A DNA stretch of 22,778 nucleotides, taken from positions 1-22,778 of the IMG/VR virus record IMGVR_UViG_3300045413_000043. One strand, written 5' to 3'. Origin of the DNA: a virus. The notes beneath the pieces are model-generated. The model saw nothing but the letters and a program-made list of their open reading frames with translations, was not told the DNA's origin and did not search any database. A program made the translations under genes and the position numbers. Shown here piece by piece: positions 1 through 21,816 of the stretch (its first letter is position 1; each line of letters opens with the position of its first letter).

Positions 1-2561
1 TGAACAAGGGCGGTTCTCTGTCGTTCGGCGGCAAATATAATGCCGCTGGCGGTTACGCGACATTCGCTAGCATCTGGGGCTTAAAGGATTCGGCGGCTGA
101 TGGCGCATTTACCGGCTATTTGGCCTTTGCCACTTCGCCTGGTGGCACGCCAACGGAAAAGATGAGAATAACAAGCTCCGGCAACGTCGGCATTGGAACA
201 TCGAGTCCTGTCGCAAAAACTCACAGTAAAGGTTCTGGAACAAGTGGACAAGTTTCAGCCGATTGGATTTTAGAGAATTCTTCGTCAGGCACGCTTGGTC
301 TTGATATTACCGGTTCAGCCGGGTCAAGTCGCGCTCGATGGTTACGTGCTGGCGGTCCATCAACAGGCACCAACTCAATGACAGAATCATTTTGTGTGAT
401 GCTAGAGGGTTCAAATGCTGGCAACGTCGGTATTGGGACGACGGAGCCCGGACAGTTATTAGACGTAAATGGTGTCTCGCGGATGAGAGATTATTTGCAG
501 CTACAAACTGGTACGACTTTAAGCGGATACTTCGGCAGAGCATCAGGATTCATTGCAGGTGGTGGACATAACGAACTTGGAATCAGGTCAGAATCAAAGT
601 ATTACGTTGCCACTAACGGCGATGGAACACCTCGCGTCACAGTGGACACATCTGGCAAAGTCGGCATCGGGACGACAAGTCCTCAAAATGGCATACATGT
701 AGTTGTGGACGATGCCACGACCAACAATGTTACTAATGTTTTACGCCTTGACCATACGACTACAGGCACAGCCGCGAACGGAATCGGAGTGGGGTTAGCA
801 TTCATAGCGGAGAAATCAAACGGGGGAGCAGAGAGTGTCGCGGATATTCAGGCAATCTTGACAGATGTAACTGCTGGGAACGAAGATGGAGCTTTAGCAT
901 TTAGGACAAATCTCAATGGCACACTAACAGAGTATGTAAGGATTACATCTACTGGCAACGTCGGGATTGGAACGACGAGTCCGAATATCTATGGTGCGGG
1001 AAACGGGCGTTTCCTTTCTATATTGGGTGCGGGTTCAGTCGCGTCTGCGGCAAGCGGACGCATTGAACTTGCGAATAATAATACAGGGAGTGACTACGGC
1101 GTCGGGGAATTGCTTTTCGTTCTGGCGAACAACAATAACGAAAAGAGAGTGGCGCAAATTTATTCTGTAACCGAGGGGAACGGCGGTGCCAATGGATTTG
1201 GAGGCAGTCTATACTTCGTGACGAAACAGGACGGTGTCGCGGGTGGTGGAGCTGTGAGAATATACATTGCAAACTCCGGCCACGTCGGCATCGGCACGAT
1301 TGGACCACAGAGAACCTTAGATGTGGCTGGAAGCGGTATTAGGGTTCAGGGAATTACAAGTGGCGGAGGCACAGGCTCAGGCATGGAAATAGGTAATACT
1401 GCTATCTATTCTTATAATAGGGATACTAGTCAATACAACCTGATGAATATTGGTGACTCCATGTATATTGCTTCAGGTGCTTCATCAAACCGCAACGTCG
1501 GCATCGGGACGACGAGCCCAGGCAGCAAGCTTCATGTGTCGGGAGATATTTCAACCGATAACACCTATGGCTTCCGATCTTACGGAGTTGGTTCTGCAAG
1601 TGCAGCCAATGCTGAATGGATTCAGGTGGATCACAATGGGGCCAGTGATAAGGCGCGTTTTTTTACGACAGCCAGCGGAACGGGCAGTGCTCGCGATATA
1701 GTTTTTTCGTCTGGCACAGGGTTTACACAATTATATCTAAAAAACGGCGGCAACGTCGGGATTGGGACGACGAGCCCGGGGAGGCCACTCTCCGTTAAAG
1801 CTGATTCCAATGGATACAATCTTGGTTTGAATGATAGTGGGAATACTGAACGCTCATGGTTTTACAGCACCTCAGGAGGTTCATTTTGGCAGACGGCATC
1901 AGGGGTCAAGCTACAGTTGTATGGATCTTCTGGTACGGGACTTGTCATTGACAATGCAAGCAACGTCGGCATCGGGACTACCACACCACTTACAAATTTA
2001 CATGTTAGAACAGGTGGTAGTTCGATTGCTGCACAAGCAGTTTCTACAGCAGCTTTTCAAAATAATGCAAATGCAAGCGATAACTGTATTCTTTCAATCG
2101 CTTCAGGAAATACCGGACTTGCAACAATCTTTCTAGGTGATCCAGATAATTATGCTCGTGGTCGTTTCCAGTATGACAACAACACAGATGCGATTGAGTT
2201 CTACACAGCGACGACAAAGTGGATGTCTATTAGTTCAACCGGCGTAGTTAATCTTGCTCAATTAACAGCCAGTGCACTTGTTGTAACAGATAGCAGCAAG
2301 AACCTTATTTCTGGGCCAGCACTACCTGCTGGATCAGCCGCAGCAAGGGTAGTAAAAACTGTATTAACTTCTGGAATGATTTCTGGAAATGTAGCAACAC
2401 AAACTCATAACTTGTCAACCGATCAAGTAAATGCTCAAGTGCAGAAAGTTTCTACTAAGCAGCGGTGGTATCCTGACATAGTAATGAGCACAAATTCCAT
2501 TGCGATTGATTTTGGGTTTGCTCCTGGAGATGGAGAATTTGAAGTGATTACTGTAGGCTAA
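1..2561 (+). CDS. Tail fibre protein with NVGIGT repeats, 5' partial
   Basis: The reading frame is open from base 3 at the window edge to the TAA at 2561, so the true start lies upstream; the TTG at 120 is only an internal codon. The protein is low-complexity, rich in Gly, Ser, Thr and Asn. It contains eight copies of a motif close to GNVGIGTTSP, each followed by a short strand such as KLHVSG or LLDVNG. This pattern is known from beta-structured trimeric phage tail fibres and other surface fibres. The last ~70 residues have an H-L-T...V..QV...P-D-I...I-F..AP...V-I-T-V-G pattern seen at tail-fibre C-termini. I see no C-terminal intramolecular chaperone (peptidase S74) domain. Likely role: host recognition at the virion surface. 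Base composition shifts to more A+T around 1950-2000, roughly where the repeats end, suggesting a mosaic gene. Confidence 0.85.
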   Translation, partial: NKGGSLSFGGKYNAAGGYATFASIWGLKDSAADGAFTGYLAFATSPGGTPTEKMRITSSGNVGIGTSSPVAKTHSKGSGTSGQVSADWILENSSSGTLGLDITGSAGSSRARWLRAGGPSTGTNSMTESFCVMLEGSNAGNVGIGTTEPGQLLDVNGVSRMRDYLQLQTGTTLSGYFGRASGFIAGGGHNELGIRSESKYYVATNGDGTPRVTVDTSGKVGIGTTSPQNGIHVVVDDATTNNVTNVLRLDHTTTGTAANGIGVGLAFIAEKSNGGAESVADIQAILTDVTAGNEDGALAFRTNLNGTLTEYVRITSTGNVGIGTTSPNIYGAGNGRFLSILGAGSVASAASGRIELANNNTGSDYGVGELLFVLANNNNEKRVAQIYSVTEGNGGANGFGGSLYFVTKQDGVAGGGAVRIYIANSGHVGIGTIGPQRTLDVAGSGIRVQGITSGGGTGSGMEIGNTAIYSYNRDTSQYNLMNIGDSMYIASGASSNRNVGIGTTSPGSKLHVSGDISTDNTYGFRSYGVGSASAANAEWIQVDHNGASDKARFFTTASGTGSARDIVFSSGTGFTQLYLKNGGNVGIGTTSPGRPLSVKADSNGYNLGLNDSGNTERSWFYSTSGGSFWQTASGVKLQLYGSSGTGLVIDNASNVGIGTTTPLTNLHVRTGGSSIAAQAVSTAAFQNNANASDNCILSIASGNTGLATIFLGDPDNYARGRFQYDNNTDAIEFYTATTKWMSISSTGVVNLAQLTASALVVTDSSKNLISGPALPAGSAAARVVKTVLTSGMISGNVATQTHNLSTDQVNAQVQKVSTKQRWYPDIVMSTNSIAIDFGFAPGDGEFEVITVG
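180..1988 (+). repeat. Eight dispersed NVGIGT coding repeats
   Basis: A roughly 30-base segment resembling ggcaacgtcggcatcggg recurs in frame at about 180, 420, 654, 954, 1278, 1491, 1749 and 1959. Spacings are irregular, 210 to 324 bases. Codon choice is kept more alike than the amino acids require (for example AAC-GTC-GG at six or more copies), while the intervening sequence is unrelated. This looks like repeated short DNA anchors between variable fibre modules. Confidence 0.85.
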
Positions 2562-4948: not shown

Positions 4949-5039
4949 CTTTCCAGTAGCAGTGAAAGCTGCGCCAGAGTGGGTTAGAGATGCGCTGAAG
5001 ACAGTAAATAAACTCGAATTTGAAATAGAACGTCGGTAA
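4833..5039 (+). CDS. Lipoprotein nested in another frame (Rz1-like o-spanin candidate)
   Basis: 68 residues from the ATG at 4833; an in-frame TTG at 4818 would add five residues and is less likely. The basic n-region (NVKKLK), the Leu/Met hydrophobic core and the LLLTGC lipobox predict signal-peptidase-II processing at Cys23, leaving about 46 mature residues that end in a short charged helix. Most of the signal peptide is encoded inside the 4754 gene in another frame, and the gene ends with a TAATG overlap with the next one. Overlapping frames plus lipobox are the hallmark of o-spanins, which bridge to the i-spanin and disrupt the Gram-negative outer membrane. The spanin role is inferred from architecture only. 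Confidence 0.6.
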   Translation: MKSNLINVKKLKMLLLMLLLTGCSHHRLENSQRLMNRNDFPVAVKAAPEWVRDALKTVNKLEFEIERR

Positions 5040-5548
5040 TGAGTATTTTCAATCAACCAGTAAGACCTCTTACGCTGTCAGCTACACCTGTTATAGATAG
5101 GCGTAAGTTAGCGGCTTTCGGGATTGTAAATTACTCGTTCATTATTCCAGTGTTTAGTGAATCGGCTCCTACATGGCTTGGAGCTAGCTACACCACTGTT
5201 GAGTTTCCTTGTGTAGCTTCTTCTGGATTTTCTTTTATTGCTCTTTTAGGACAGCCAACAACTCCGAACTTCTGTTTAGCGGTTCGTTCTGGAAATAATC
5301 GCTACAAATTCTGGGAAGGTGTTGGAGAGCTTTTGAATGCTCCGCTGTATAATGGAGAATCGATTGCTACATCTTTTGCTCTGGAAGTTTGGACAGCCCA
5401 AGACGAGCCGATAACATCAATTTCTTCGCAGATAGAATTAGTTACTTCTCTGCGGCGGTTTGCTACTGCTTCTAGTGAAGCGGTAACAGAGAACCTTGGA
5501 GTAAGTGACACACTGACAGGAAGTTCGTTAATCTTAACCTTTGCTTAA
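5039..5548 (+). CDS. Hypothetical phage structural-type protein
   Basis: 169 residues; the start is fixed by the TAATG junction with the lipoprotein gene. The sequence is Ser/Thr/Ala-rich with alternating strand-like segments and no membrane helix, signal peptide, coiled coil or catalytic motif that I recognise. It lies between the lysis group and a tail fibre, so a virion or fibre-associated role is plausible. Only two bases separate it from the next gene. The function is unknown. Confidence 0.5.
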   Translation: MSIFNQPVRPLTLSATPVIDRRKLAAFGIVNYSFIIPVFSESAPTWLGASYTTVEFPCVASSGFSFIALLGQPTTPNFCLAVRSGNNRYKFWEGVGELLNAPLYNGESIATSFALEVWTAQDEPITSISSQIELVTSLRRFATASSEAVTENLGVSDTLTGSSLILTFA

Positions 5549-8727: not shown

Positions 8728-11016
8728 ATGATTGCTCAAGGTATATTCGGAGCGGATTCGGTTTTACTAGCGTTTTTTGACGGTAGAGCTTACTACCGAG
8801 ATTTTGCATCAACTGATGAAGCATTCCGGCAGATAAATGGTTTGCAGTTAGATGCTAATGTTCCATTCATTTATGCTGTTCCCATCCCAGGATCAAGCAT
8901 CAATTTCGCACGAGAGAAGTTCGGAGAAGGAAATGAGAACATCATTTTCACTAATCCTACAACAGCGACTCCAGCGGCAGTATTCGTAACTGACGGAGTT
9001 ACTCAGCCTGTAATTATTCCGCCGAATGGTCAATGGAGATTGACGAAGACTTATTCTCAGTGGACCATTGATGAACCGGAGTATGTTCCGATAGGGACAT
9101 TGCCTGTATATGTAGGTGTTAAACTTTATTTGGCGGCGCGGGATAAAGCAGGACGATTGACCAGAATCCTACATTCAGTTTCTGGTAGGCCACTGGATTT
9201 CATGATTCCGATTGGTGAAGATGGAAACAAAACATCTGTAGATGAAGAACTTGGTGGTGCTCCTGTAGTTCGTCATGCTATTGCTTATGATGAAATTACT
9301 GCGTTGAACAGGATTGCTACAACCGAAGATTCTTTCTTTGCGGCGACGCGGAAAAGCTCCTATCTTGTAACGCCGATTGCCGATGACTTGTTTGGAGAAC
9401 CGAGATTCAAGAACCAGTTCCTGTTCTCCACCGGACCAGAGAATCAATATAGCACAGTAGATATTCTTGGAGATACTGCACTAATTGACAGCGGCGGTAT
9501 TCGTGCATTTAATGCTATTGCTGCGCTGAAGAATGAAGGCCGCAACAGCGTATTTAGTAGGAAGATTTTCCGGTTATTCCACTCTGTTGTCCAGACAATC
9601 ACCACAGCGTTTCCGTTTGACAATTATGCGCTGTTTGCTGTGAATACAATCTACGGTCCAGGGATTGTAGTGTATGACACGCTGGTTGAAAAGTTCATCG
9701 CTCTCGATATTTATCCTGGAGTTGGGCTGATTAAGCAGTTTGCTGAGATTAAAGTTGCTGGCAGCAGGCGATTGTTCTTCATAACCTCTGATGCTTTCCT
9801 TTATGAAGCGTTTGCAGATACTACAACAGCGAAAGCTAGGTTCTATTTTGGGGATTTGTCCAGCGGAGATCCAAAGATCGAGCACAAAGGAGCATTCTTC
9901 TACTCAATTTTCGACCAAATCAAAGAATCTGGACGGGCACAGGTGAGTTTATTTGTAGATCATCACAGAGAGAAGTCCCTGCAAGTAGATGTTGCACAAA
10001 ATATCACAGAAAATGATCAATCTGTTGCTCTGAATCTTCCTTTTCACCACTCCACTGAAGATTCTTCAACGCCGCTGGCATTTAACTTCCAAGATTCTCG
10101 ACATGGAACTAGACTTGGATTCCTTCTTGAGTGGGATTTTGAAGGAAGTTTGAACCATGTTCAAGTAAACACTGAGGAGCGGACAGCATCTATGTCTTTG
10201 CAGCAAGAAGGGAAGATTCAAGGTAATTATTCGCAAAGCAGCACCTTTACTCCTCTAGTGCTTTGTGTTACTGGGAATGATGGAGTAGCTTCAGCGAACA
10301 AATTAGCAGTTGTTCGAGCAATTAAGAACGAGAATCCTGAGTTTGTGCTTGGAACAGGAAATCATAACTATCCTGCTGGAGCTTCAGCAACAAGAGCTAC
10401 TACATTGGAGCAATATTGGGGACAACTTCTCCAGAATGAACAGGCTTTCTTCGCACTATCGAACCGTGATCTCGATACATCAAATGGTGGGCCGGCGATT
10501 CAGTATTACTTGCAAGGTCACAGGTATTTCAAGAAGACACTCCGCGCTGGATTGTGCGATTTGTTTGTGTATAACAGTGGAATGAATACTGCTAGTGCTA
10601 TTGTTGAACCTGATGGCATTGTCGAAGGCTCAATTCAAGCAAATTGGTTGAAGCGAGAACTAGAACAATCTACAGCGACTTGTAAGATAGTTCTAATCGG
10701 TCATCCACCTTACAGCAGCATCAGTCAGTTTGCTTCTTTGCAGTTACCTTTTAGGCTTTGGGGAGCTTCTTTAGTGTTGTCAAGTTTCCATACTGCATAT
10801 GAACATCTTTTTGTTGACGGCTTGCATTACATTAACATCGGACTTGGCGGCGATTCAACGTTTGCTTCTTTTCCTGGAACCTCTGTTGCTGGAAGCATTA
10901 CGCGAGAAACTGATGTATTTGCTTTCCTGAAACTTGTTGTGAACCATTTCGCTATCGATGTTCGTTTGGTGGATACTGACAGGAACATCCTTGACTTTGC
11001 TACCATCAGCATCTAA
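8728..11016 (+). CDS. Tail protein with degenerate metallophosphatase C-terminal domain
   Basis: 762 residues; the ATG abuts the previous stop. Residues 1-70 (GIFGADSVLLAFFDGRAYY, then NFAREKF) and the following ~400 residues form a strand-rich body like the beta-propeller of phage tail stabilisation/structural proteins. Residues ~508-762 follow the purple-acid-phosphatase/calcineurin-like order of motifs: TGNDG at 515-519, GTGNHNYP at 542-549, SNRDLD at 578-583, IGHPPYSS at 657-664, and FHTAYE at 687-692 followed by a Y-I-N-I-G-L-G-G strand. Compared with GDxG, GDNxYP, GNHD, GHxP and GHxHxYE, most metal ligands are replaced, so catalysis is unlikely. I infer a virion-surface domain, perhaps for binding. 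TAATG overlap with the next gene. Confidence 0.65.
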   Translation: MIAQGIFGADSVLLAFFDGRAYYRDFASTDEAFRQINGLQLDANVPFIYAVPIPGSSINFAREKFGEGNENIIFTNPTTATPAAVFVTDGVTQPVIIPPNGQWRLTKTYSQWTIDEPEYVPIGTLPVYVGVKLYLAARDKAGRLTRILHSVSGRPLDFMIPIGEDGNKTSVDEELGGAPVVRHAIAYDEITALNRIATTEDSFFAATRKSSYLVTPIADDLFGEPRFKNQFLFSTGPENQYSTVDILGDTALIDSGGIRAFNAIAALKNEGRNSVFSRKIFRLFHSVVQTITTAFPFDNYALFAVNTIYGPGIVVYDTLVEKFIALDIYPGVGLIKQFAEIKVAGSRRLFFITSDAFLYEAFADTTTAKARFYFGDLSSGDPKIEHKGAFFYSIFDQIKESGRAQVSLFVDHHREKSLQVDVAQNITENDQSVALNLPFHHSTEDSSTPLAFNFQDSRHGTRLGFLLEWDFEGSLNHVQVNTEERTASMSLQQEGKIQGNYSQSSTFTPLVLCVTGNDGVASANKLAVVRAIKNENPEFVLGTGNHNYPAGASATRATTLEQYWGQLLQNEQAFFALSNRDLDTSNGGPAIQYYLQGHRYFKKTLRAGLCDLFVYNSGMNTASAIVEPDGIVEGSIQANWLKRELEQSTATCKIVLIGHPPYSSISQFASLQLPFRLWGASLVLSSFHTAYEHLFVDGLHYINIGLGGDSTFASFPGTSVAGSITRETDVFAFLKLVVNHFAIDVRLVDTDRNILDFATISI

Positions 11017-13270: not shown

Positions 13271-16200
13271 ATGCCAATCACACTAACAAGAGAAGATCGA
13301 AAAGCTGCTGTTCGGCAGTTAGGATACGATCCTGAACAGTGGGATATTGACGAAGTAACAAACCAGTTGATTCCGGTAACTCCTTCGGAAGATACTGGCT
13401 CACCAGAATCTTCTTTACGCACGCATGATCCAGTATCAGCAGGACCAAGTCCTTTAGGTTCAGGGTTAAGACATGCGGCTGTTGGTGTCCTTCCTTCAGC
13501 ATTAGCATTAAAAGCTGGAGTTGCTGTTGGCGCTTCAACATTGAATCCCCTTCTTGGTTTACTTGCTGCCGGTGGAACAGGAATTGTAAGCCACATGGCA
13601 GAGAGGAAGGCTATTAAAACCTTCGCTCCAGAATTTCATAAACAGCTTGAGAAGGATGTTGAAGTTAATCCTAAAGCGTCTTTTGCTGGTGGGATGCTCA
13701 GTAGTGCACCATTCATGGTTCCTGGCAAATCAATTCCAGAAGCTGCTAAAGCATTACCATTATTAGTGCGGCGCGGTGCTACTTTGTTGCCTGAGCAAAA
13801 AGCAGCTTTATATAATGTCGGATTAGGTGGAACTGTTGGAGCGGGTTCTTCAGTAGCAGAAGATATTTTGGCTAAACCGGGTCCGATCTCTGAAAGACTT
13901 AAAAACATTTCTCCGACTAAAGCTGCTCTTGGGGCTGTTATTGGTGGAGCTTCAAGCGATCCTACAAGAATTGGACAACGCTTGTTAGGACTTTCTCCTA
14001 CGATTGCCACTGCGCCACGAATTCTTTCTACTCGCAGAGCAGCAACAGAAGATACTCCGCTTTCTCCAGAAGAACTTAACCTTGTTCGTCTAGGTATTGA
14101 GCCAGGCGCTGAAGCTCCTGCGCCGACAGTAAAAACTAAATACACGAAGGAAGAACTGAAAGCTGTTAAGCAGCAAATGAAGGATGAAGCTGCTGAATTA
14201 GCAGTAGCAAAGAAACTCAAAACTAGTGCTGCTGGAGAAGAATTAGCTAGAGGAATGGAGGCTGAAGTTGCTGAAATTCGAGAAGCTAAATTAAGGGCCG
14301 CTGGAGAGCAGAAGAAAATTGGAGATGCTGATGAAATTGCTGCACAACAAAAAGCTGAGGCAAATGCTGCTGAAGCCGCAGCAAAACAAGAAGCTGCATT
14401 GAAAGAGCAGGCAGATAAATTAGCTACTGGACAGCGTGCATTAACTGAGCGTAAATTAGCTCTCCGTCAAGCTAAACTTGAGGCAAGGGCAAAAGAACTC
14501 GAAAAGCAGGAAATAGATTTCAAAAACAAGCTAGCTGCTAAAGCATTAAAACCTCCACCTAAGCAGCGGCCTGGTATCGAAGAATCAAGATTACTTGGGC
14601 TTACGGATGCTGAACAAGATCGATTGATTCGTCTAGGAGAGATAGACCGGCGCGGTGATGCTACTCCAGAGGAAGTAAAAGAACTTAATCTTCTGTTCGA
14701 TAAATCACAGAGGGCTTCTCCAGAGGCTGCTGTGCCTGAATTACCTTCTTTTGATGAAGTCAGTAAAAAGATTGGATGGAAAAGTAAGGTTAAAAATCCT
14801 ACTCCTGGAAGTATGCATGGGTCGCATTCCTGGAAAGATTTGCTTGATGCAGTCCTTTCTGGGAGAAAGCCTGTTGCTACTGGCTCCGCACTTCCTCCGA
14901 AATCATCTGTTCCAGAAGGAATAGTCTTTTACCGACTTACAGATGATGATAGCATTAGCCATTTTGGGTCTTACGTTGCCGTGAAGAAAGGTAACGAAGA
15001 CGCTATTAATAATTTGTTACTTGCTAGGGATTCAGAAGAAGTCGGAAAAGCTCTTGGTTATACAGCAGAAGAAATTGCTGAATATGCTACAAGACTCAAG
15101 ATGATTCGGGATTATGAGAAGAAACATGGACCGTTTTATCAGAAAGAGCCTGCTGCTGTAGAAGCTCTACCTACTACTCCAAAAGCAACAAAACCCTCAG
15201 AGGGTTGGTTCCAGTGGTGGAGAAACCTTGCTGATGAGCATGGAATTCAGCTTGAACGGGACGGCACTTTAACTCAAAATGGTAAACCGATTGCTGGTTT
15301 AGCCTTCCTTCGTCAAATGTCCCAGCGTGCTCTGGCGAAAATCAATCCATCGAAAGCTGGATTTGATACTCCAGCGCATGAAGTATTTCATATTTACTTC
15401 AGGGATATGTTGGAAGGTCCATCGAAGATTCGAGCTAAGTTAGCGAAGAAAGCTCTTGATTCTTTGGAACGTGCAGAAGGAGAAGTTGCTGCGCGGATTG
15501 ATGCAATCCGAAAAGCTAATCCTGGAATGTCTCGTCGAGAAGCTGCTGAAGAATTTCTTGTGAGTGCTGTTGGAGAAGAATCGATCTGGCGTGCTCTAGG
15601 CGAGGACACAGGATTTAAGAGAGCAATGCAGGATATTTGGTCTAATATCAAGGCGCGGTTTGGTCCTAAAGGAAGTGCTACAATCGATGATTGGAAACGG
15701 TTGTATAGTAACAAACTTGTTTACGACGCTCCGACTGGTGCTCGGTATTCGAAAGAGTTGCCGGTAGCAAAACCTGTTGGCGATCCAGAAGTATTTATGC
15801 AAGATGAACCGACTATCCCTAAAGTTGAATCTCGCGCAAGAGTAGGTATTCCTGGAATCCATGATTCAAGAGGCTCAGAAGCTATTATGGATTTGGACAG
15901 AAATGGTTTTGGAATTTCTGAGCGTTATAAGAAGTGGCTGAGGGAGGTCAAAGGGTTTTCTGATCAAGAAATTGCTGATTTGTCTAACCGGCTAAGGGAA
16001 GCCAAAGGTATTGGAATCGGATCATCACTTAAATACCAAGATGAGCCAGCAGTGCCTAAACTTGAGAAGCAAATCACAAGACGCCGTCATCCGCAATTTT
16101 TGATTAATGGAATCCACCAATATTTTGATAGAAATCATAAATTGGTTGCAGAAATCTATCGAGATCCTGAAACAGGATTTTGGCGTGATAATGACGATCA

Positions 16201-19200
16201 AAGTTTCATTGGATTTTCACGATCAGAAGCAGAAAGGTCTTTGAATTTAGCACAAGACGAACCAGTAATTACTCGCCTGGAACCCCTGGAAGAATCTCTT
16301 GGCCCTGCTGACAAAAACCCTAAAGCTACTGCTCCAAAATCTAGGGTAGGTGTTCCTGGAATGGTTACTGGCGGTAGGGAAGATATTGGAGGAGAAGCTA
16401 TAATGGATTTAGACAGAAGCCCTGGGTTCCCTTATCGTTATAGGGAGTGGTTACAAGATGTTAAAAAACTTTCTGACTCGGAAATTGATGCTTTGGAACG
16501 TCAAGCGGCAGCGGACCAAGTAGGTTATATGCGAAAGAAAACACAAGATGAACCTACTGTCCCGGAACTTGAAGCAAGTGCCCCAAAATCTAGGGTGGGA
16601 ATTCCTGGTATGAAAGTTTTAGGGTCACAACCTATTATGGATCTAAGCAAAGAAACTTCTGGAATTTCTGAACGCTATCGGGAATGGTTAAAAAATGTTA
16701 AAGGATTGTCTGATGACGAGATTGCTGCTTTGGATAGGCAACGGGCGGCAAATTCTATTATTCTTACACGACTAAAAAAGCAGGACGATCCATCAATTAC
16801 TTCCCTAGATCGCCGCCCTGTAGAAGATAATCCTAGAGCAGCACTTCCAATCCCGCGTCCAACTGAAGCTGAAGTAATGTCTGCACCAGAAGTAGAGAAA
16901 CAGCCAAGAAGTCTTCGAGTCTTGGAAGGAATCCATTCTAGGATTCTTCATCACAAAGACTACAAGAATACTCCCGAAGCTCATTATGCTGCCCGCACCT
17001 TGAACCGTTGGGAACGTTTAGCAGATTTCAATCAAGGACGTTTCGTAGAACTTCCTCAATTAGCTCTGAACGAATTCACTCCAGCGGTTCGAGATTCCTA
17101 CTACCAGAAAGCTATGCAGGCTGGACTAACTAAGCAGCCAGCTAAATTCAACGCCGAAGAACAGAAGGTCGAAAACTACATGCGCAAATACCTGTTAGAT
17201 GTTCATGATGAGGCTCGTAATATGGGCTACAAAATCAATGATCGGGAACCAATCAGCGAACCTACCTATTTTCCTAGCATCATGTCCGCACAAGTTCAAC
17301 ATGTTCTTACACAGCGCCGTCATACTTTAGAAGGACAGCGTTACTGGAAAGCTATCACAGATCACTGGAAAGCTGCCGAACTGGAAGACACTGATAAACT
17401 CCTAGAGAATTACCTCAAAGCTATCTCTAGCATCCAGAAAGAAGGTTTAGGTCAAATTGAGTTTGGTGCTCTGCGGAAAGCTCAAGGTGTTGGATTGCCT
17501 GTTTCAGTCCGAGAGAAGGACTTGATTGTTGCTGTGTCGAAATACGGTAAACGAGTATCAAAGGATATGGCCTTATTTGAGGCGGTGCAATCTGATCCAA
17601 AGGCCATGAAGATATTAGGAATTAAAGGACACGACGGAGAAGAAGCAGGAGACGTGAAATGGGATTCTGGCGAAGAAGTAAAATCGCTGGCAGGAGTAGA
17701 AGAAATTAATACGGCACTGCAACATAATATGGATTTGATGCCGAAGCATCCTTTTACGCGTGCTGTAGATAAACTTGTTTCTAATCTTCTGATGGGTCCA
17801 ACAACCGGACTAAAGAACCTAATTAATACTCCAGCGCAGGCACTTCCTTATGTAAAAGGCGGACAACTTCCTGAATTCTTGACAGCATATTCTCGCGGTC
17901 GAGAACTAACTGCCCGCGCTTTTGGTTCAAGAGTAATCCGAAATAACATGCAGTCAATCTTGCTCGGAGATGAAGTTGATACTTCCAGTAGAATGCTGCA
18001 ATGGTTCAACAAAATGTCAGCAGGACTGTATCAATATCAACAAGGAGCTTTGGAAAAAACTTCTAGGCTTTGGACTTTAGGACTTGCTGATATTGCAAAT
18101 TCCCAGAATCTTGCAAGAGCACAAGCTGGAGATTTAGCGGCTAGAAAAGCCCTAAGAACTATGGGCGGTTTACTTGAAAAGAACCGACTCGAAGAACTAA
18201 TCAGTGGGCGCGGTAAATCAATAACTGAGCGAGAAATGGACATGCTAAACAAAGAATTTGTTGATGCTGTTCAGCAAACTTATGGCCCAAAAGATCAGCC
18301 ACGCTGGACCCTTGAAGGAGCGTATTCTCCATTCTTTGTGTTGGCGCGGTGGAGTGTTGGAAAGGCAAACAACATCATCAAGCATGTTGTTAATCCGTTA
18401 GTGAATGATGGGAACATTGTTCCTCTCATTGTTTATGCTGGCGGAACATTCCTGAATGGGTTGGCACTCCAAAAACTTGTTGAGATTCTTAATAATAAAA
18501 GGGACTTCAACCCAACTGCGAATGAAGTTTGGGATGCCATGAAAACTGATGGACGTAAAGCAGAGATTGCTGCTGGGATTATTAACATTATGCAACTGGG
18601 AAGTGCTGGAGGATTTGTCTCAGATGTTTTGAAGATTGTTGCTGATGTTGGTTTAACAGGACAGATGCCACGAGGATACGGAATTCCAACCGTTACTTTA
18701 GGTGTAAATCTTGTGGAGGATTTAGTGAATCTACAAAGGGCTGTCAACGATGGAACAGAGCCAGTTGAAGCTATCTTAGCATTCATTAAAGATTTAGCCG
18801 TGAAGAATGTCCAATCAGTCAGATTAGCTTTATCTCATTTGCCGGGAGCTAGAAAAGAAGAACTGAAAAGGAAAGAACGTTACAGGGATTTAGCTGTATT
18901 CGAGCGGCTGACTGGTGAAAGAACAATGCCGTTGGATGCTTCAGCGCAGCGCCTAAGTAATCCTCTACACCGCCCAGACATTAAAGCATTTAAGCGAGCG
19001 AAGACTGTAGAAGAAGGTGCTGAGTTGCTGCCAAAACTAATCGAGAAAGCTGAACAGAGAGCAGCAGGAAATATTGAAAAGTTCCGAGATGAAATGAAAA
19101 CTTTGAAAGGGCACAGTTATCAAACTATGCCCAATCCAAAGACTCATCCGAAAGATTTTTCTGAGTTCTTCCAGTTCCTTGTTCGGACACAGGGAGAACA

Positions 19201-19285
19201 AGCTGCTCTTGAACATTTAACAGATTTCATGCAGCAGAATGCAGTAGATAAGGTTAAGGCAAAGCTAGTGCCTAGTGTTCGCTAA
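13271..19285 (+). CDS. Giant ejection/polyvalent-type protein with HExxH peptidase motif
   Basis: 2004 residues. Order: Gly/Ala-rich hydrophobic region (about 66-108) that could insert in membranes; Ala/Glu/Lys coiled coil (about 285-430); a small helical domain near 540-625; a zincin-like region with HEVFH at 703-707 and a candidate third ligand in AEEF (Glu760/761); an array of five QDEP linkers (844-1180); and a long helical C-terminal region with a PTTGLKNLINTPAQ segment near 1510-1525 and further Gly/Ala-rich stretches. Giant multidomain proteins with peptidase plus helical C-terminal regions occur among phage polyvalent and internal virion proteins injected with DNA. I infer roles in genome ejection and cell-envelope or host-protein processing. 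Its stop overlaps the convergent gene's stop. Confidence 0.75.
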   Translation: MPITLTREDRKAAVRQLGYDPEQWDIDEVTNQLIPVTPSEDTGSPESSLRTHDPVSAGPSPLGSGLRHAAVGVLPSALALKAGVAVGASTLNPLLGLLAAGGTGIVSHMAERKAIKTFAPEFHKQLEKDVEVNPKASFAGGMLSSAPFMVPGKSIPEAAKALPLLVRRGATLLPEQKAALYNVGLGGTVGAGSSVAEDILAKPGPISERLKNISPTKAALGAVIGGASSDPTRIGQRLLGLSPTIATAPRILSTRRAATEDTPLSPEELNLVRLGIEPGAEAPAPTVKTKYTKEELKAVKQQMKDEAAELAVAKKLKTSAAGEELARGMEAEVAEIREAKLRAAGEQKKIGDADEIAAQQKAEANAAEAAAKQEAALKEQADKLATGQRALTERKLALRQAKLEARAKELEKQEIDFKNKLAAKALKPPPKQRPGIEESRLLGLTDAEQDRLIRLGEIDRRGDATPEEVKELNLLFDKSQRASPEAAVPELPSFDEVSKKIGWKSKVKNPTPGSMHGSHSWKDLLDAVLSGRKPVATGSALPPKSSVPEGIVFYRLTDDDSISHFGSYVAVKKGNEDAINNLLLARDSEEVGKALGYTAEEIAEYATRLKMIRDYEKKHGPFYQKEPAAVEALPTTPKATKPSEGWFQWWRNLADEHGIQLERDGTLTQNGKPIAGLAFLRQMSQRALAKINPSKAGFDTPAHEVFHIYFRDMLEGPSKIRAKLAKKALDSLERAEGEVAARIDAIRKANPGMSRREAAEEFLVSAVGEESIWRALGEDTGFKRAMQDIWSNIKARFGPKGSATIDDWKRLYSNKLVYDAPTGARYSKELPVAKPVGDPEVFMQDEPTIPKVESRARVGIPGIHDSRGSEAIMDLDRNGFGISERYKKWLREVKGFSDQEIADLSNRLREAKGIGIGSSLKYQDEPAVPKLEKQITRRRHPQFLINGIHQYFDRNHKLVAEIYRDPETGFWRDNDDQSFIGFSRSEAERSLNLAQDEPVITRLEPLEESLGPADKNPKATAPKSRVGVPGMVTGGREDIGGEAIMDLDRSPGFPYRYREWLQDVKKLSDSEIDALERQAAADQVGYMRKKTQDEPTVPELEASAPKSRVGIPGMKVLGSQPIMDLSKETSGISERYREWLKNVKGLSDDEIAALDRQRAANSIILTRLKKQDDPSITSLDRRPVEDNPRAALPIPRPTEAEVMSAPEVEKQPRSLRVLEGIHSRILHHKDYKNTPEAHYAARTLNRWERLADFNQGRFVELPQLALNEFTPAVRDSYYQKAMQAGLTKQPAKFNAEEQKVENYMRKYLLDVHDEARNMGYKINDREPISEPTYFPSIMSAQVQHVLTQRRHTLEGQRYWKAITDHWKAAELEDTDKLLENYLKAISSIQKEGLGQIEFGALRKAQGVGLPVSVREKDLIVAVSKYGKRVSKDMALFEAVQSDPKAMKILGIKGHDGEEAGDVKWDSGEEVKSLAGVEEINTALQHNMDLMPKHPFTRAVDKLVSNLLMGPTTGLKNLINTPAQALPYVKGGQLPEFLTAYSRGRELTARAFGSRVIRNNMQSILLGDEVDTSSRMLQWFNKMSAGLYQYQQGALEKTSRLWTLGLADIANSQNLARAQAGDLAARKALRTMGGLLEKNRLEELISGRGKSITEREMDMLNKEFVDAVQQTYGPKDQPRWTLEGAYSPFFVLARWSVGKANNIIKHVVNPLVNDGNIVPLIVYAGGTFLNGLALQKLVEILNNKRDFNPTANEVWDAMKTDGRKAEIAAGIINIMQLGSAGGFVSDVLKIVADVGLTGQMPRGYGIPTVTLGVNLVEDLVNLQRAVNDGTEPVEAILAFIKDLAVKNVQSVRLALSHLPGARKEELKRKERYRDLAVFERLTGERTMPLDASAQRLSNPLHRPDIKAFKRAKTVEEGAELLPKLIEKAEQRAAGNIEKFRDEMKTLKGHSYQTMPNPKTHPKDFSEFFQFLVRTQGEQAALEHLTDFMQQNAVDKVKAKLVPSVR
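15800..16810 (+). repeat. QDEP-linked module array inside the giant protein
   Basis: Five linkers of the form Q-D-[ED]-P-x-[IV]-x-x-[LV]-[ED] start at 15800, 16037, 16253, 16544 and 16781 (residues 844, 923, 995, 1092, 1171). Modules one, three and four share R-V-G-[IV]-P-G-[IM], an I-M-D-L segment and Y-[KR]-[KE]-W-L-x-x-V-K-x-[FL]-S-D-x-E-I. Module two is unrelated (HPQFLINGIHQYFD onwards). Modules three and four are also very alike in DNA at their starts (about 16331 and 16580), so duplication is recent enough to see. Confidence 0.8.
19282..19285. other. Convergent genes with overlapping stop codons
   Basis: The four bases ctaa hold the plus-strand TAA (19283-19285) and the minus-strand TAG (19284-19282). 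The structural block and the replication block therefore meet with no intergenic space, and any bidirectional terminator would have to lie inside coding sequence. I saw no obvious hairpin with a T-run around it. Confidence 0.9.
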
Positions 19286-19641
19286 TTCAATTTCCCGTGC
19301 CTGAATGGACGGGTTTTATTGAAAGCATGTTTTGTTAGAATCGCTGTGTAAATATCAATCCGCAGCCTTCGACTAACATCTAAGGCGCGGATGATAATAT
19401 CTGCAAGTTCTTCTTCAGCCTTCGTTAGCGGCCGTAACTGCAAACCGAGCATCTTACTTGCTTTATCGCAAAGATGATCAGCTTCTCCAGCGCGGAAAGC
19501 ATCCCATAATTCAGAGATTTCAGCATGGAGGTTGTTGCATTGGTTAGCAATAAACACTTCGATTGGCTGTTCTTTTGGATGAAAGCCATGTTCAACAGCA
19601 CAAGCATGGACTGTATCAGCGATTTCGTCGATTGTATTCAT
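19282..19641 (-). CDS. MazG-like all-alpha NTP pyrophosphohydrolase
   Basis: 119 residues. The family signature is visible: ExxE at Glu41/Glu44 in NLHAEISELWDA and ExxD at Glu78/Asp81 in EEELADIIIR, which bind Mg2+ in the all-alpha NTP-PPase superfamily. The chain ends with NKTRPFRHGKL, a typical last segment of phage MazG-like enzymes. Likely reaction: NTP or dNTP to NMP plus pyrophosphate, helping shape nucleotide or alarmone pools during infection; the substrate is not predictable. An AAAGGA site 8 bases upstream and an ATGA overlap with the ligase gene support this start. Confidence 0.8.
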   Translation of the reverse strand: MNTIDEIADTVHACAVEHGFHPKEQPIEVFIANQCNNLHAEISELWDAFRAGEADHLCDKASKMLGLQLRPLTKAEEELADIIIRALDVSRRLRIDIYTAILTKHAFNKTRPFRHGKLN

Positions 19642-20456
19642 ATGGTAGATCCTTTCACTTGCAGGAATATAGGAGTTCTTGGTTTATCTTTCGTTCCGTA
19701 AGCCTTGTATTTGAACATCAGAGTTTTCCCAATCGGCTTATTCTTCCAGAAGTATTTCTGCTGTAAGAAATTCAGTCCAGAGCCGACAAAGAATCTTCCA
19801 AACACTGGATGGAATACTTCAAAAGAACCACACAAATTCAGCACCCGCAGATTCTGTTGCTGGTATGTATCTGGATCAGCATTCTCCACAAGCTGCTTTA
19901 CATCCATGATTGTAGCTTCATCTGTAATCCACTGGATGTATTTTATCATTCCGAGTTCTGCCAGTGTGGACCTACCGAACTTGTAAGGAGCATTCGGATT
20001 TCTAATAATACTTCCTTCAAAGTCTTTGTTATTCGCCAGCGCAGCTTTCAATTCAGCTTCGGTATCTACCATTACTGGCATCAGTGCTGGAAAGCCTTTG
20101 TTGAACAAGTAATGGTTATAGCGTTTGATATAACTCATGTTCGGCTCCCTGAAATGATCAAACACAACAAAGACTGTCCCTTCAGGAAGACGCTCATTGA
20201 TGGACATAACTATCGACTGAATTTGATGGAATGTTTTGTCTGGAATAATGATTTCTCCATCGCAGCATTCAAGCTCTGGCCGCGCTTCTAACATAGCACG
20301 AAGCCGTCTGTTTGGAATTTGATGGTTACTTCTTGTCCAGGTTTGTCCGTGCTGGATTAAGCACCGGATACCATCTAGTTTCGGAGTGACCGCCAAAGGG
20401 TATCTCAACTGAGAGAATTCCCAAGGCCCATTGTAAGCAAGCATTGGTGTTGGCAT
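19638..20456 (-). CDS. ATP-dependent DNA ligase, small phage type
   Basis: 272 residues. Nucleotidyltransferase motifs in order: motif I KLDGIR at 26-31 with Lys26 as the AMP-accepting lysine; motif Ia-like TRSNHQIPN at 41-49; motif III DGEII at 66-70; motif IIIa FVVFD at 96-100; motif IV EGSIIR at 147-152; and a motif V position around Lys172 (MIKY), where the usual K-x-K is reduced to one lysine. An OB-fold-like C-terminal region (about 205-270) follows, with a PRTPIFLQVKG end resembling the last motif of T7-type ligases. It seals nicks in duplex DNA in replication. It is separated from the ATPase stop by one base and overlaps the MazG-like gene by four. Confidence 0.85.
   Translation of the reverse strand: MPTPMLAYNGPWEFSQLRYPLAVTPKLDGIRCLIQHGQTWTRSNHQIPNRRLRAMLEARPELECCDGEIIIPDKTFHQIQSIVMSINERLPEGTVFVVFDHFREPNMSYIKRYNHYLFNKGFPALMPVMVDTEAELKAALANNKDFEGSIIRNPNAPYKFGRSTLAELGMIKYIQWITDEATIMDVKQLVENADPDTYQQQNLRVLNLCGSFEVFHPVFGRFFVGSGLNFLQQKYFWKNKPIGKTLMFKYKAYGTKDKPRTPIFLQVKGSTI
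19650..19655 (-). promoter_or_regulatory. Shine-Dalgarno AAAGGA of the MazG-like gene
   Basis: On the minus strand AAAGGA lies 8 bases before the ATG at 19641, inside the end of the ligase gene. It supports the chosen start. Confidence 0.55.
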
Positions 20457-20457
20457 A

Positions 20458-21816
20458 CTATCTTTTTGTTATGTAGGCGATCTTTCTGTTTTCTGTTTCG
20501 CCTTTTGTTATTTTGTCTGTTCTTTGGAGATAGTCTAAGACTTCGATAAGCTCAGACTCTTTAACATCTCCAACGAATTCTTTCCATATATCGGTGAAGG
20601 TTTGTGGAACTTGAGAATTCCTGATAAATGTTTCCACGTCTTTTGCAACCTTCGCCAAGAAATTCTTGCCGCCGAAACTTAGTGCTAGGTGCATCCTAGA
20701 TTCTACTGTTTCCAGAACTTCAAGCACCCGCACACAAGTTTCTTTCTCAATAACTAAGCTATCATTATCCGCAAAGTGTATTGCCATCGCTAGCTTCTGA
20801 GCATGAACTTTCTTTCGCTCGTAATACGGCAACATCTTCGGACTGCTGTTTGGTCGTCGGATAGGATGGATTTTCTCAAAGTAGTGTTTGAAGTATGCAA
20901 ATGCTTCATCAGAGTATTGGACATGACCGTAGATTCCAGCAAGTTTCCGCAGACGTGTAAGAATATCTATAACAAAATTCTTCTGAATGTCATTCCTTTC
21001 CGGTAACTCAAATTTCTCAAAGCGTTTTGTAGTCTCATAAACAAAAACTACTCGCGCTGTGAACCCGGTTCCGATGAGTTTATTATCAAATGCTTCTGAC
21101 ATGAAATCTGGAGTGGTTCCAGCGTAGAATGAGATACATGGACGCGGAATGATATTCTCTCCGCAGTGCTTAGTTTCGTAGATATACTTCTCTCCATCCC
21201 ATATGTCAGTGAAGAAAGTAACTAAAGTGCTGGTGTCTCTGGAGAACAATGTAGCAAGTTCTGATATGCAGAATGCAAGGCTGTTATGCGTGTAACGCAT
21301 TGTTTTCATTTCTCCATTTTCCGCACCAGGAACTTTGTAAACGAAGGCGCGGTAAGCACCTTCAAGAGATTCAACTAACTTTGCATATGTAGTGCAGGAA
21401 GCTCCAAGCGGAAACAACAAGTTCCGCTTTTTTGTTTTAATCTTCTTCGGGTCTTCACCAATCTCTCGGAGGAATTCTCTGGCAGCTTCAGCAGATTCTT
21501 CTAGCTTCGCTGCTTTTGTTGAAGGATCAAGCATTGTCGGTCCAGCGGCAGTAGCAGTTACTTTCGGAGGAATTAATTCGTGGTAAGACAGCAGGAAGTT
21601 CAGTTCATGAACCATTAAGCCCTTTCCAACTCCAGGTTCTCCAACAAGAATAACATACATCCCTGGATATATTGGATGATGAGAAGCACCTATCCAGACA
21701 CGTCGCTGTAAGCAGGAAGCAATCAGAAAGTAAAACGACCAGTCAATAAAAGTGTCTGGAGAAGTGCTGTCTTTCATTACATAACGCCATTTTTCAAGAA
21801 GTGTTTTGTGTTCCAT
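20458..21816 (-). CDS. DUF3987-like AAA+/RecA-type ATPase, putative replicative helicase
   Basis: 452 residues. Walker A GEPGVGKG lies at 59-66 (Lys65) after a hydrophobic strand YVILV. A Walker B-like strand LAFCISELATLF at 180-191 holds Ser-Glu instead of the more usual Asp-Glu, as in DUF3987 proteins. A Y-I-Y-E-T-K...P-R-P-C-I-S-F-Y-A-G-T-T-P segment at 211-236 and GTGFTARVVFV at 249-259, with Arg255 as arginine-finger candidate, match that family. The C-terminal ~90 residues resemble a winged-helix domain. A charged insert (about 100-132) follows the first strand. No primase domain is seen in the window. Likely role: DNA unwinding or loading in phage replication, which fits the adjacent ligase. 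An AGGA site precedes the ATG. Confidence 0.75.
   Translation of the reverse strand: MEHKTLLEKWRYVMKDSTSPDTFIDWSFYFLIASCLQRRVWIGASHHPIYPGMYVILVGEPGVGKGLMVHELNFLLSYHELIPPKVTATAAGPTMLDPSTKAAKLEESAEAAREFLREIGEDPKKIKTKKRNLLFPLGASCTTYAKLVESLEGAYRAFVYKVPGAENGEMKTMRYTHNSLAFCISELATLFSRDTSTLVTFFTDIWDGEKYIYETKHCGENIIPRPCISFYAGTTPDFMSEAFDNKLIGTGFTARVVFVYETTKRFEKFELPERNDIQKNFVIDILTRLRKLAGIYGHVQYSDEAFAYFKHYFEKIHPIRRPNSSPKMLPYYERKKVHAQKLAMAIHFADNDSLVIEKETCVRVLEVLETVESRMHLALSFGGKNFLAKVAKDVETFIRNSQVPQTFTDIWKEFVGDVKESELIEVLDYLQRTDKITKGETENRKIAYITKR

What the first reader, a model, noticed from the sequence alone, without database searches (positions are those of the whole stretch)
15800..16810. QDEP-linked tandem modules in the giant ejection protein
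Five near-identical Q-D-E-P-x-V-x-x-L-E linkers punctuate four modules; three modules are homologous and one is a foreign insert. The array lies about 100 residues after a putative zinc peptidase motif in the same chain. Uniform linkers between exchangeable modules resemble a polyprotein with processing sites, or a recombination-built set of effector domains delivered into the host. The repeated unit (RVGIPG...IMDL...YREWL..VKGLSDDEI) is unfamiliar to me.
Basis: partly seen in the sequence, partly recalled or inferred. Interest (0 to 1): 0.68.

Follow-up and report, generated by a model that had tools for sequence, protein, structure and literature searches.

The report
Tandem repeat array in phage protein
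A 2004-residue protein of an uncultivated phage, probably one it injects when it infects, contains three related copies of an otherwise unknown ~75-residue unit and one unrelated ~62-residue segment, all separated by the same short acidic motif; the array is real and kept by selection, but nothing found here shows that the motif is a cutting site.

Summary
The array is real. In the 2004-aa ORF 13271-19285(+), five QD[E/D]P-x-[IV]-[PT]-x-[LV]-[ED] motifs start at residues 844, 923, 995, 1092 and 1171. They bound three homologous units (44-55% identical) and one non-homologous 62-aa segment. Shuffled copies of the protein never give one such motif. Synonymous sites are near saturation between copies while amino acids persist, so the duplications are old and selected. 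A weak structure model shows an unstructured RVGIPG...IMDL stretch, a helical hairpin (pLDDT 75-85) and an unstructured motif: a motif-plus-hairpin repeat, not an enzyme-like effector domain. HEVFH at residue 703 with E760/E761 looks like a zinc-peptidase site, but no family model confirms it. By synteny the gene is the last virion gene of 119X/PaMx41-like podoviruses, facing the primase; nine positional counterparts have no such motif or comparable array, and two have HEXXH. No relative of the array was found in IMG/VR, GTDB genomes, INPHARED, PLSDB, PDB, Pfam, PHROGs or NCBIfam. Preferred reading: a flexible multivalent docking or 'molecular tape' segment of an ejection protein. Cleavage by the in-chain peptidase, already proposed for polyvalent phage proteins, stays possible but undemonstrated.

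The parts
13271..19285 (+). giant ORF, 2004 aa, probable internal/ejection virion protein, last gene of the late operon
   Evidence: open frame; position as PaMx41 gp24, annotated structural, and other counterparts; no sequence homology to them
15377..15391 (+). HEVFH (residues 703-707), candidate zinc-peptidase site; candidate third ligand E760/E761 in EEFLVSA (from 15548)
   Evidence: no match to PF18818 MPTase-PolyVal; model too poor to confirm
15800..15829 (+). motif 1 QDEPTIPKVE
15830..16036 (+). module 1 (RVGIPG / IMDL / YKKWL hairpin)
   Evidence: homologous to modules 3 and 4
16037..16066 (+). motif 2 QDEPAVPKLE
16067..16252 (+). module 2, unrelated 62-aa segment (933-994)
   Evidence: no homology to the other modules; GC 36% against 43.7%; no family hit
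16253..16282 (+). motif 3 QDEPVITRLE
16283..16543 (+). spacer PLEESLGPADKNPKATAPK and module 3
16544..16573 (+). motif 4 QDEPTVPELE
16574..16780 (+). module 4
   Evidence: model with helices 43-52 and 57-80
16781..16810 (+). motif 5 QDDPSITSLD
20458..21816 (-). primase/helicase-type protein that places the phage near 119X/PaMx41-like podoviruses
   Evidence: phrog_14296 E 4.7e-32; tblastn

Best explanation
A lineage-specific tandem repeat in a giant internal (ejection) protein of a podovirus of roughly 119X/PaMx41-like gene order. The unit is: short acidic QDEPxVPxLE motif, extended RVGIPG...IMDL motif, then a helical hairpin Y[RK]xWLxxVKxLSDxEI. It arose by old duplications. I think it works as a flexible, multivalent docking segment, a 'molecular tape' whose copies bind equivalent sites on a ring-shaped partner (internal core, portal or ejection tunnel) and which can unfold and refold as the protein passes through portal and tail. 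The motif is the conserved end of each unit, a hinge or docking motif, not necessarily a cut site. Shown: the repeat, its conservation under selection, the gene position. Inferred: the structure of the unit and the ejection role. Speculative: the docking role and its partner.
For: Three homologous copies and five motifs. Amino acids kept while synonymous sites drifted: modules pS 0.55-0.60, dN 0.36-0.53; motifs pooled pS 0.72, pN 0.24. Model: only the hairpin is confident, the rest is coil. Conserved residues are structural or hydrophobic (R V G P G, I M D L, Y W L, S D E I), not catalytic-looking. Gene position as last late gene in related podoviruses, PaMx41 gp24 being annotated structural. 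T7 gp16 is proposed to use molecular-tape residues that stitch gp15 subunits together (PMC8954989).
Against: No partner is known and no docking was tested. The structure model rests on three sequences (mean pLDDT 61, pTM 0.34). The motif also flanks the unrelated module 2, which a simple repeat-unit view does not predict. Positional counterparts lack any such repeat, so the function is not general to this kind of protein.
Confidence: 0.45

Rival explanations
1. Self-processed polyprotein: the HEVFH zinc peptidase in the chain cuts at or near the QDEP motifs, during head assembly or after injection, and frees the modules.
For: HEXXH plus a plausible glutamate helix lies 141 residues upstream; the motif is modelled as coil and flanks even the unrelated module 2; motifs are under purifying selection; Iyer et al. 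propose MPTase autoprocessing of polyvalent proteins, citing P1 DdrB (PMC5512222). HEXXH also occurs in the counterparts of ABTNL-3 and Mel-JY34.
Against: No cleavage data. PF18818 does not match. The counterparts with HEXXH have no repeated motif. N4 vRNAP has HExxH yet is packaged unprocessed; P1 DarA is cut by the separate prohead protease Pro (PMC12810830).
Confidence: 0.2
2. Passive spacer: duplicated low-constraint segment with no function of its own beyond length and flexibility.
For: Mostly unstructured in the model; absent from positional counterparts; no relatives.
Against: Amino acids held over near-saturated synonymous divergence, with the same residues kept in all copies.
Confidence: 0.2
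3. Recombination-built set of exchangeable effector cassettes that act in the host, with the motif as the joint.
For: Module 2 is unrelated, has lower GC (36%) and is flanked by the motif. Motifs 3 and 5 (IT-type) could end two blocks, as if module 2 held the place of a former RVGIPG unit. The hairpin resembles a stretch of a lambda-P-like helicase-loader ORF.
Against: No other phage with any of the modules. Synonymous divergence of the motifs leaves little DNA identity for recombination. No catalytic signature. The helicase-loader likeness was pre-selected by the search pattern and is below family cut-offs.
Confidence: 0.1

Closest known systems
Phage-type polyvalent proteins with zincin-like MPTase (Iyer et al. 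2017, PMC5512222)
   Same: Giant multi-part phage protein, probably injected, with an HEXXH site in the chain; processing by the peptidase was proposed there.
   Different: No match to MPTase-PolyVal or LPD38; no recognised enzyme domain; a repeated motif between tandem copies of one unit is not a feature of their definition.
Phage N4 virion RNA polymerase gp50 (PMC12633501)
   Same: Giant ejected chain with HExxH and long flexible linkers between folded units.
   Different: 3500 aa; no RNA polymerase domain matched here; its linkers are not described as repeats.
Last late-operon giant protein of 119X/PaMx41-like podoviruses (PaMx41 gp24, EBPR podovirus 3 gp20, ABTNL-3 PVS_24, Mel-JY34)
   Same: Position, size class and orientation toward primase; HEXXH in two.
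   Different: No detectable sequence similarity; no QDEP motif and no comparable repeat array.
T7 gp16 ejection protein (review PMC8954989)
   Same: Large late protein thought to be ejected; a molecular-tape segment offers a model for repeated docking.
   Different: No sequence or structural match shown here.

Membership tests
Polyvalent protein with MPTase-PolyVal domain | match to the MPTase-PolyVal model (PF18818) | tested here: not met
   no match at E <= 10, and none in Pfam scans
Polyvalent protein with MPTase-PolyVal domain | HEXXH helix and a downstream glutamate in a second helix | tested here: inconclusive
   HEVFH at 703 and EEFLVSA at 760; model pLDDT 49, no zincin match
Polyvalent protein with MPTase-PolyVal domain | several distinct known domains or LPDs in one chain | tested here: not met
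   no Pfam, NCBIfam or PHROG domain above cut-off; LPD38 no match, although the Desulfofustis counterpart has it weakly
Podovirus ejection (internal virion) protein | gene position at the end of the late operon | tested here: met
Podovirus ejection (internal virion) protein | presence in the virion and ejection into the host | not testable with these tools
   no virion exists for this record
Viral polyprotein with repeated cleavage sites | proteolysis at the repeated motif | not testable with these tools
   needs protein chemistry
Lambda P-like helicase loader | match to Phage_lambda_P / phrog_109 | tested here: not met
   modules give no hit to either; only a pattern-selected ORF in L052 resembles both, weakly

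The most novel reading that the evidence does not exclude
A phage-borne polyprotein whose own zinc peptidase cuts at a repeated QDEPxVPxLE signal and, on injection, frees several copies of a small host-acting or tunnel-building module plus an exchangeable cassette.
Probability: 0.12. Interest if true: 0.75.

Novelty: new variant of a known kind. Interest (0 to 1): 0.36.

Why it matters
Whether the HExxH domains in giant injected phage proteins really cut their own chain is open. A chain with five copies of one motif, two of them flanking an unrelated segment, would be an unusually clean substrate to test that. If instead the units dock to a symmetric partner, they would be a countable handle on how podovirus ejection proteins are stacked and threaded.

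Tried and rejected
Relatives of the whole protein, of the modules (profile and degenerate DNA patterns), of the motif (pairs and single) and of the C-terminal part: none in viral contigs, genome contigs (46, 73), phages, plasmids or PDB. Neighbouring structural genes also found no tblastn match (the query joined two genes in one frame, so it tests only the first properly). QDEP pairs in L026/L022 lie in a large protein with different repeats and no visible resemblance beyond QDEP: taken as chance. The 10 genome hits show no second motif. Extra degenerate copies outside the array (for example QKEPAAVEAL near residue 624): not significant. Homology of module 2 to the others: rejected. LPD38 and MPTase-PolyVal: no match. 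Fold searches: uninformative because the models are poor. The self-BLAST hides internal repeats and was redone in pieces.

Full report
OBSERVATION. The window is a linear 22,778-base IMG/VR virus record. ORF 13271-19285(+) encodes 2004 aa without interruption. Five motifs QDEPTIPKVE, QDEPAVPKLE, QDEPVITRLE, QDEPTVPELE and QDDPSITSLD start at residues 844, 923, 995, 1092 and 1171 (coordinates). A pattern fitting all five never occurs in 2000 shuffles of the protein. Pairwise they share 4 to 8 of 10 residues, so 'near-identical' is generous. Modules 1, 3 and 4 are homologous (core scores 118-166 against shuffled maxima of 40-41; 44-55% identical). Module 2 (933-994) is not related to them and has lower GC, 36%. 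The HEVFH motif lies at residue 703, 141 residues before the first motif. No further significant copy of the unit was found in the protein.

AGE AND SELECTION. Between module copies pS is 0.55-0.60 (dS about 1.0-1.2) and dN 0.36-0.53. Over the five motifs pooled, pS is 0.72 (near saturation) and pN 0.24; single motif pairs have only ten codons, so those values are rough. The QDEP/QDDP copies use different codons (for example CCG, CCA, CCA, CCT, CCA for P). The array is therefore not a recent duplication or an assembly artefact: amino acids were kept while silent sites drifted. The motifs fall into two kinds, x[IV]Px[LV]E (1, 2, 4) and [VS]IT[RS]L[ED] (3, 5); motifs 3 and 5 show the lowest synonymous difference of any pair (pS 0.27). 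This would fit two blocks, each ending in an IT-type motif, with module 2 in the place of a former unit; that is inference.

STRUCTURE. A three-row AlphaFold model of module 4 has mean pLDDT 61; only the hairpin (helices 43-52 and 57-80) reaches 75-85 in part, and the RVGIPG...IMDL stretch and both motifs are coil. Foldseek against viral models finds nothing. The peptidase-like segment, folded alone, is too poor to use (pLDDT 49). HEVFH followed by EEFLVSA at 760 resembles by eye the HExxH...EE[FY] layout in the counterparts of ABTNL-3 and Mel-JY34 printed, but alignment scores to these are not significant and PF18818 does not match.

CONTEXT. The ORF at 20458-21816(-) is a primase/helicase-type protein (phrog_14296, E 4.7e-32) related to those of 119X/PaMx41-like and similar podoviruses. 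In most of these a giant gene is the last of the late operon and runs toward the primase side, as here; PaMx41 gp24 (1849 aa) is annotated as a structural protein. The giant proteins show no sequence similarity to this one, so 'ejection protein' is an inference from position. The nine counterparts have neither the motif nor a comparable repeat (one weak 23-residue pair in vir526).

RELATIVES. None of the array or of the giant protein was found by seven scans of IMG/VR, two of the GTDB genomes, tblastn against INPHARED and PLSDB, or Pfam, PHROGs, NCBIfam and PDB searches. The collection scans need short exact or degenerate peptide matches, so moderately diverged relatives could be missed. The one hit of a 16-residue hairpin pattern is an ORF with weak likeness to lambda-P helicase loaders (L052). 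The likeness extends slightly beyond the searched residues, but it was selected by the pattern and no family model links the modules to that family.

MECHANISM. Three copies of one small unit of extended motif plus hairpin, kept by selection, fit repeated binding to a repetitive partner better than a set of different effectors. T7 gp16 is proposed to have a comparable 'molecular tape' role (PMC8954989). The processing idea is not new: Iyer et al. 2017 propose that MPTases cut polyvalent proteins, citing phage P1 DdrB, and also note that N4 vRNAP is packaged unprocessed (PMC5512222); a 2025 preprint on N4 vRNAP describes HExxH in its C1 domain (PMC12633501). The motif around the unrelated module 2 is the best argument that the motif has a role of its own, which could be hinge, docking or cut site. 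I give docking/tape 0.45, processing 0.2, passive spacer 0.2, effector cassettes 0.1.

VERDICT. A real, selected, orphan repeat array in a known kind of giant phage protein. Interesting as a test object, but neither effectors nor cleavage is shown.

Noticed in passing
window 5039-5548 (+), residue 121: A second ORF of the late region carries TAQDEPITSISSQ, like the IT-type motifs 3 and 5. It may be chance.
   Followed up: no
window 3-2561 (+): Tail-fibre-like protein with many GNVGIGTTSP repeats; phrog_18345 and phrog_9942 tail fiber; cut by the window start.
   Followed up: no
window 8728-11016 (+): 762-aa structural-position protein whose C-terminal part (GNHNYP, GHPPYS motifs) looks by eye like a metallophosphatase fused to a tail protein; no family hit.
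   Followed up: no
window 19638-20456 (-): ATP-dependent DNA ligase (phrog_114, E 1.6e-35; DNA_ligase_OB_2).
   Followed up: no
L004 17815-23187, L006 17795-23479: Giant counterparts in Vibrio phage ABTNL-3 and Microcystis phage Mel-JY34 carry HEXXH (residues 629 and 768) with a downstream SFEE[FY] segment, so a zinc-peptidase-like site recurs in this gene position.
   Followed up: partly
L026 3232-7299 (-), L022: Unrelated 1355-aa phage protein with a tandem ~45-aa repeat holding QDEPRLIGAQSRPI twice and a third QDEP.
   Followed up: partly
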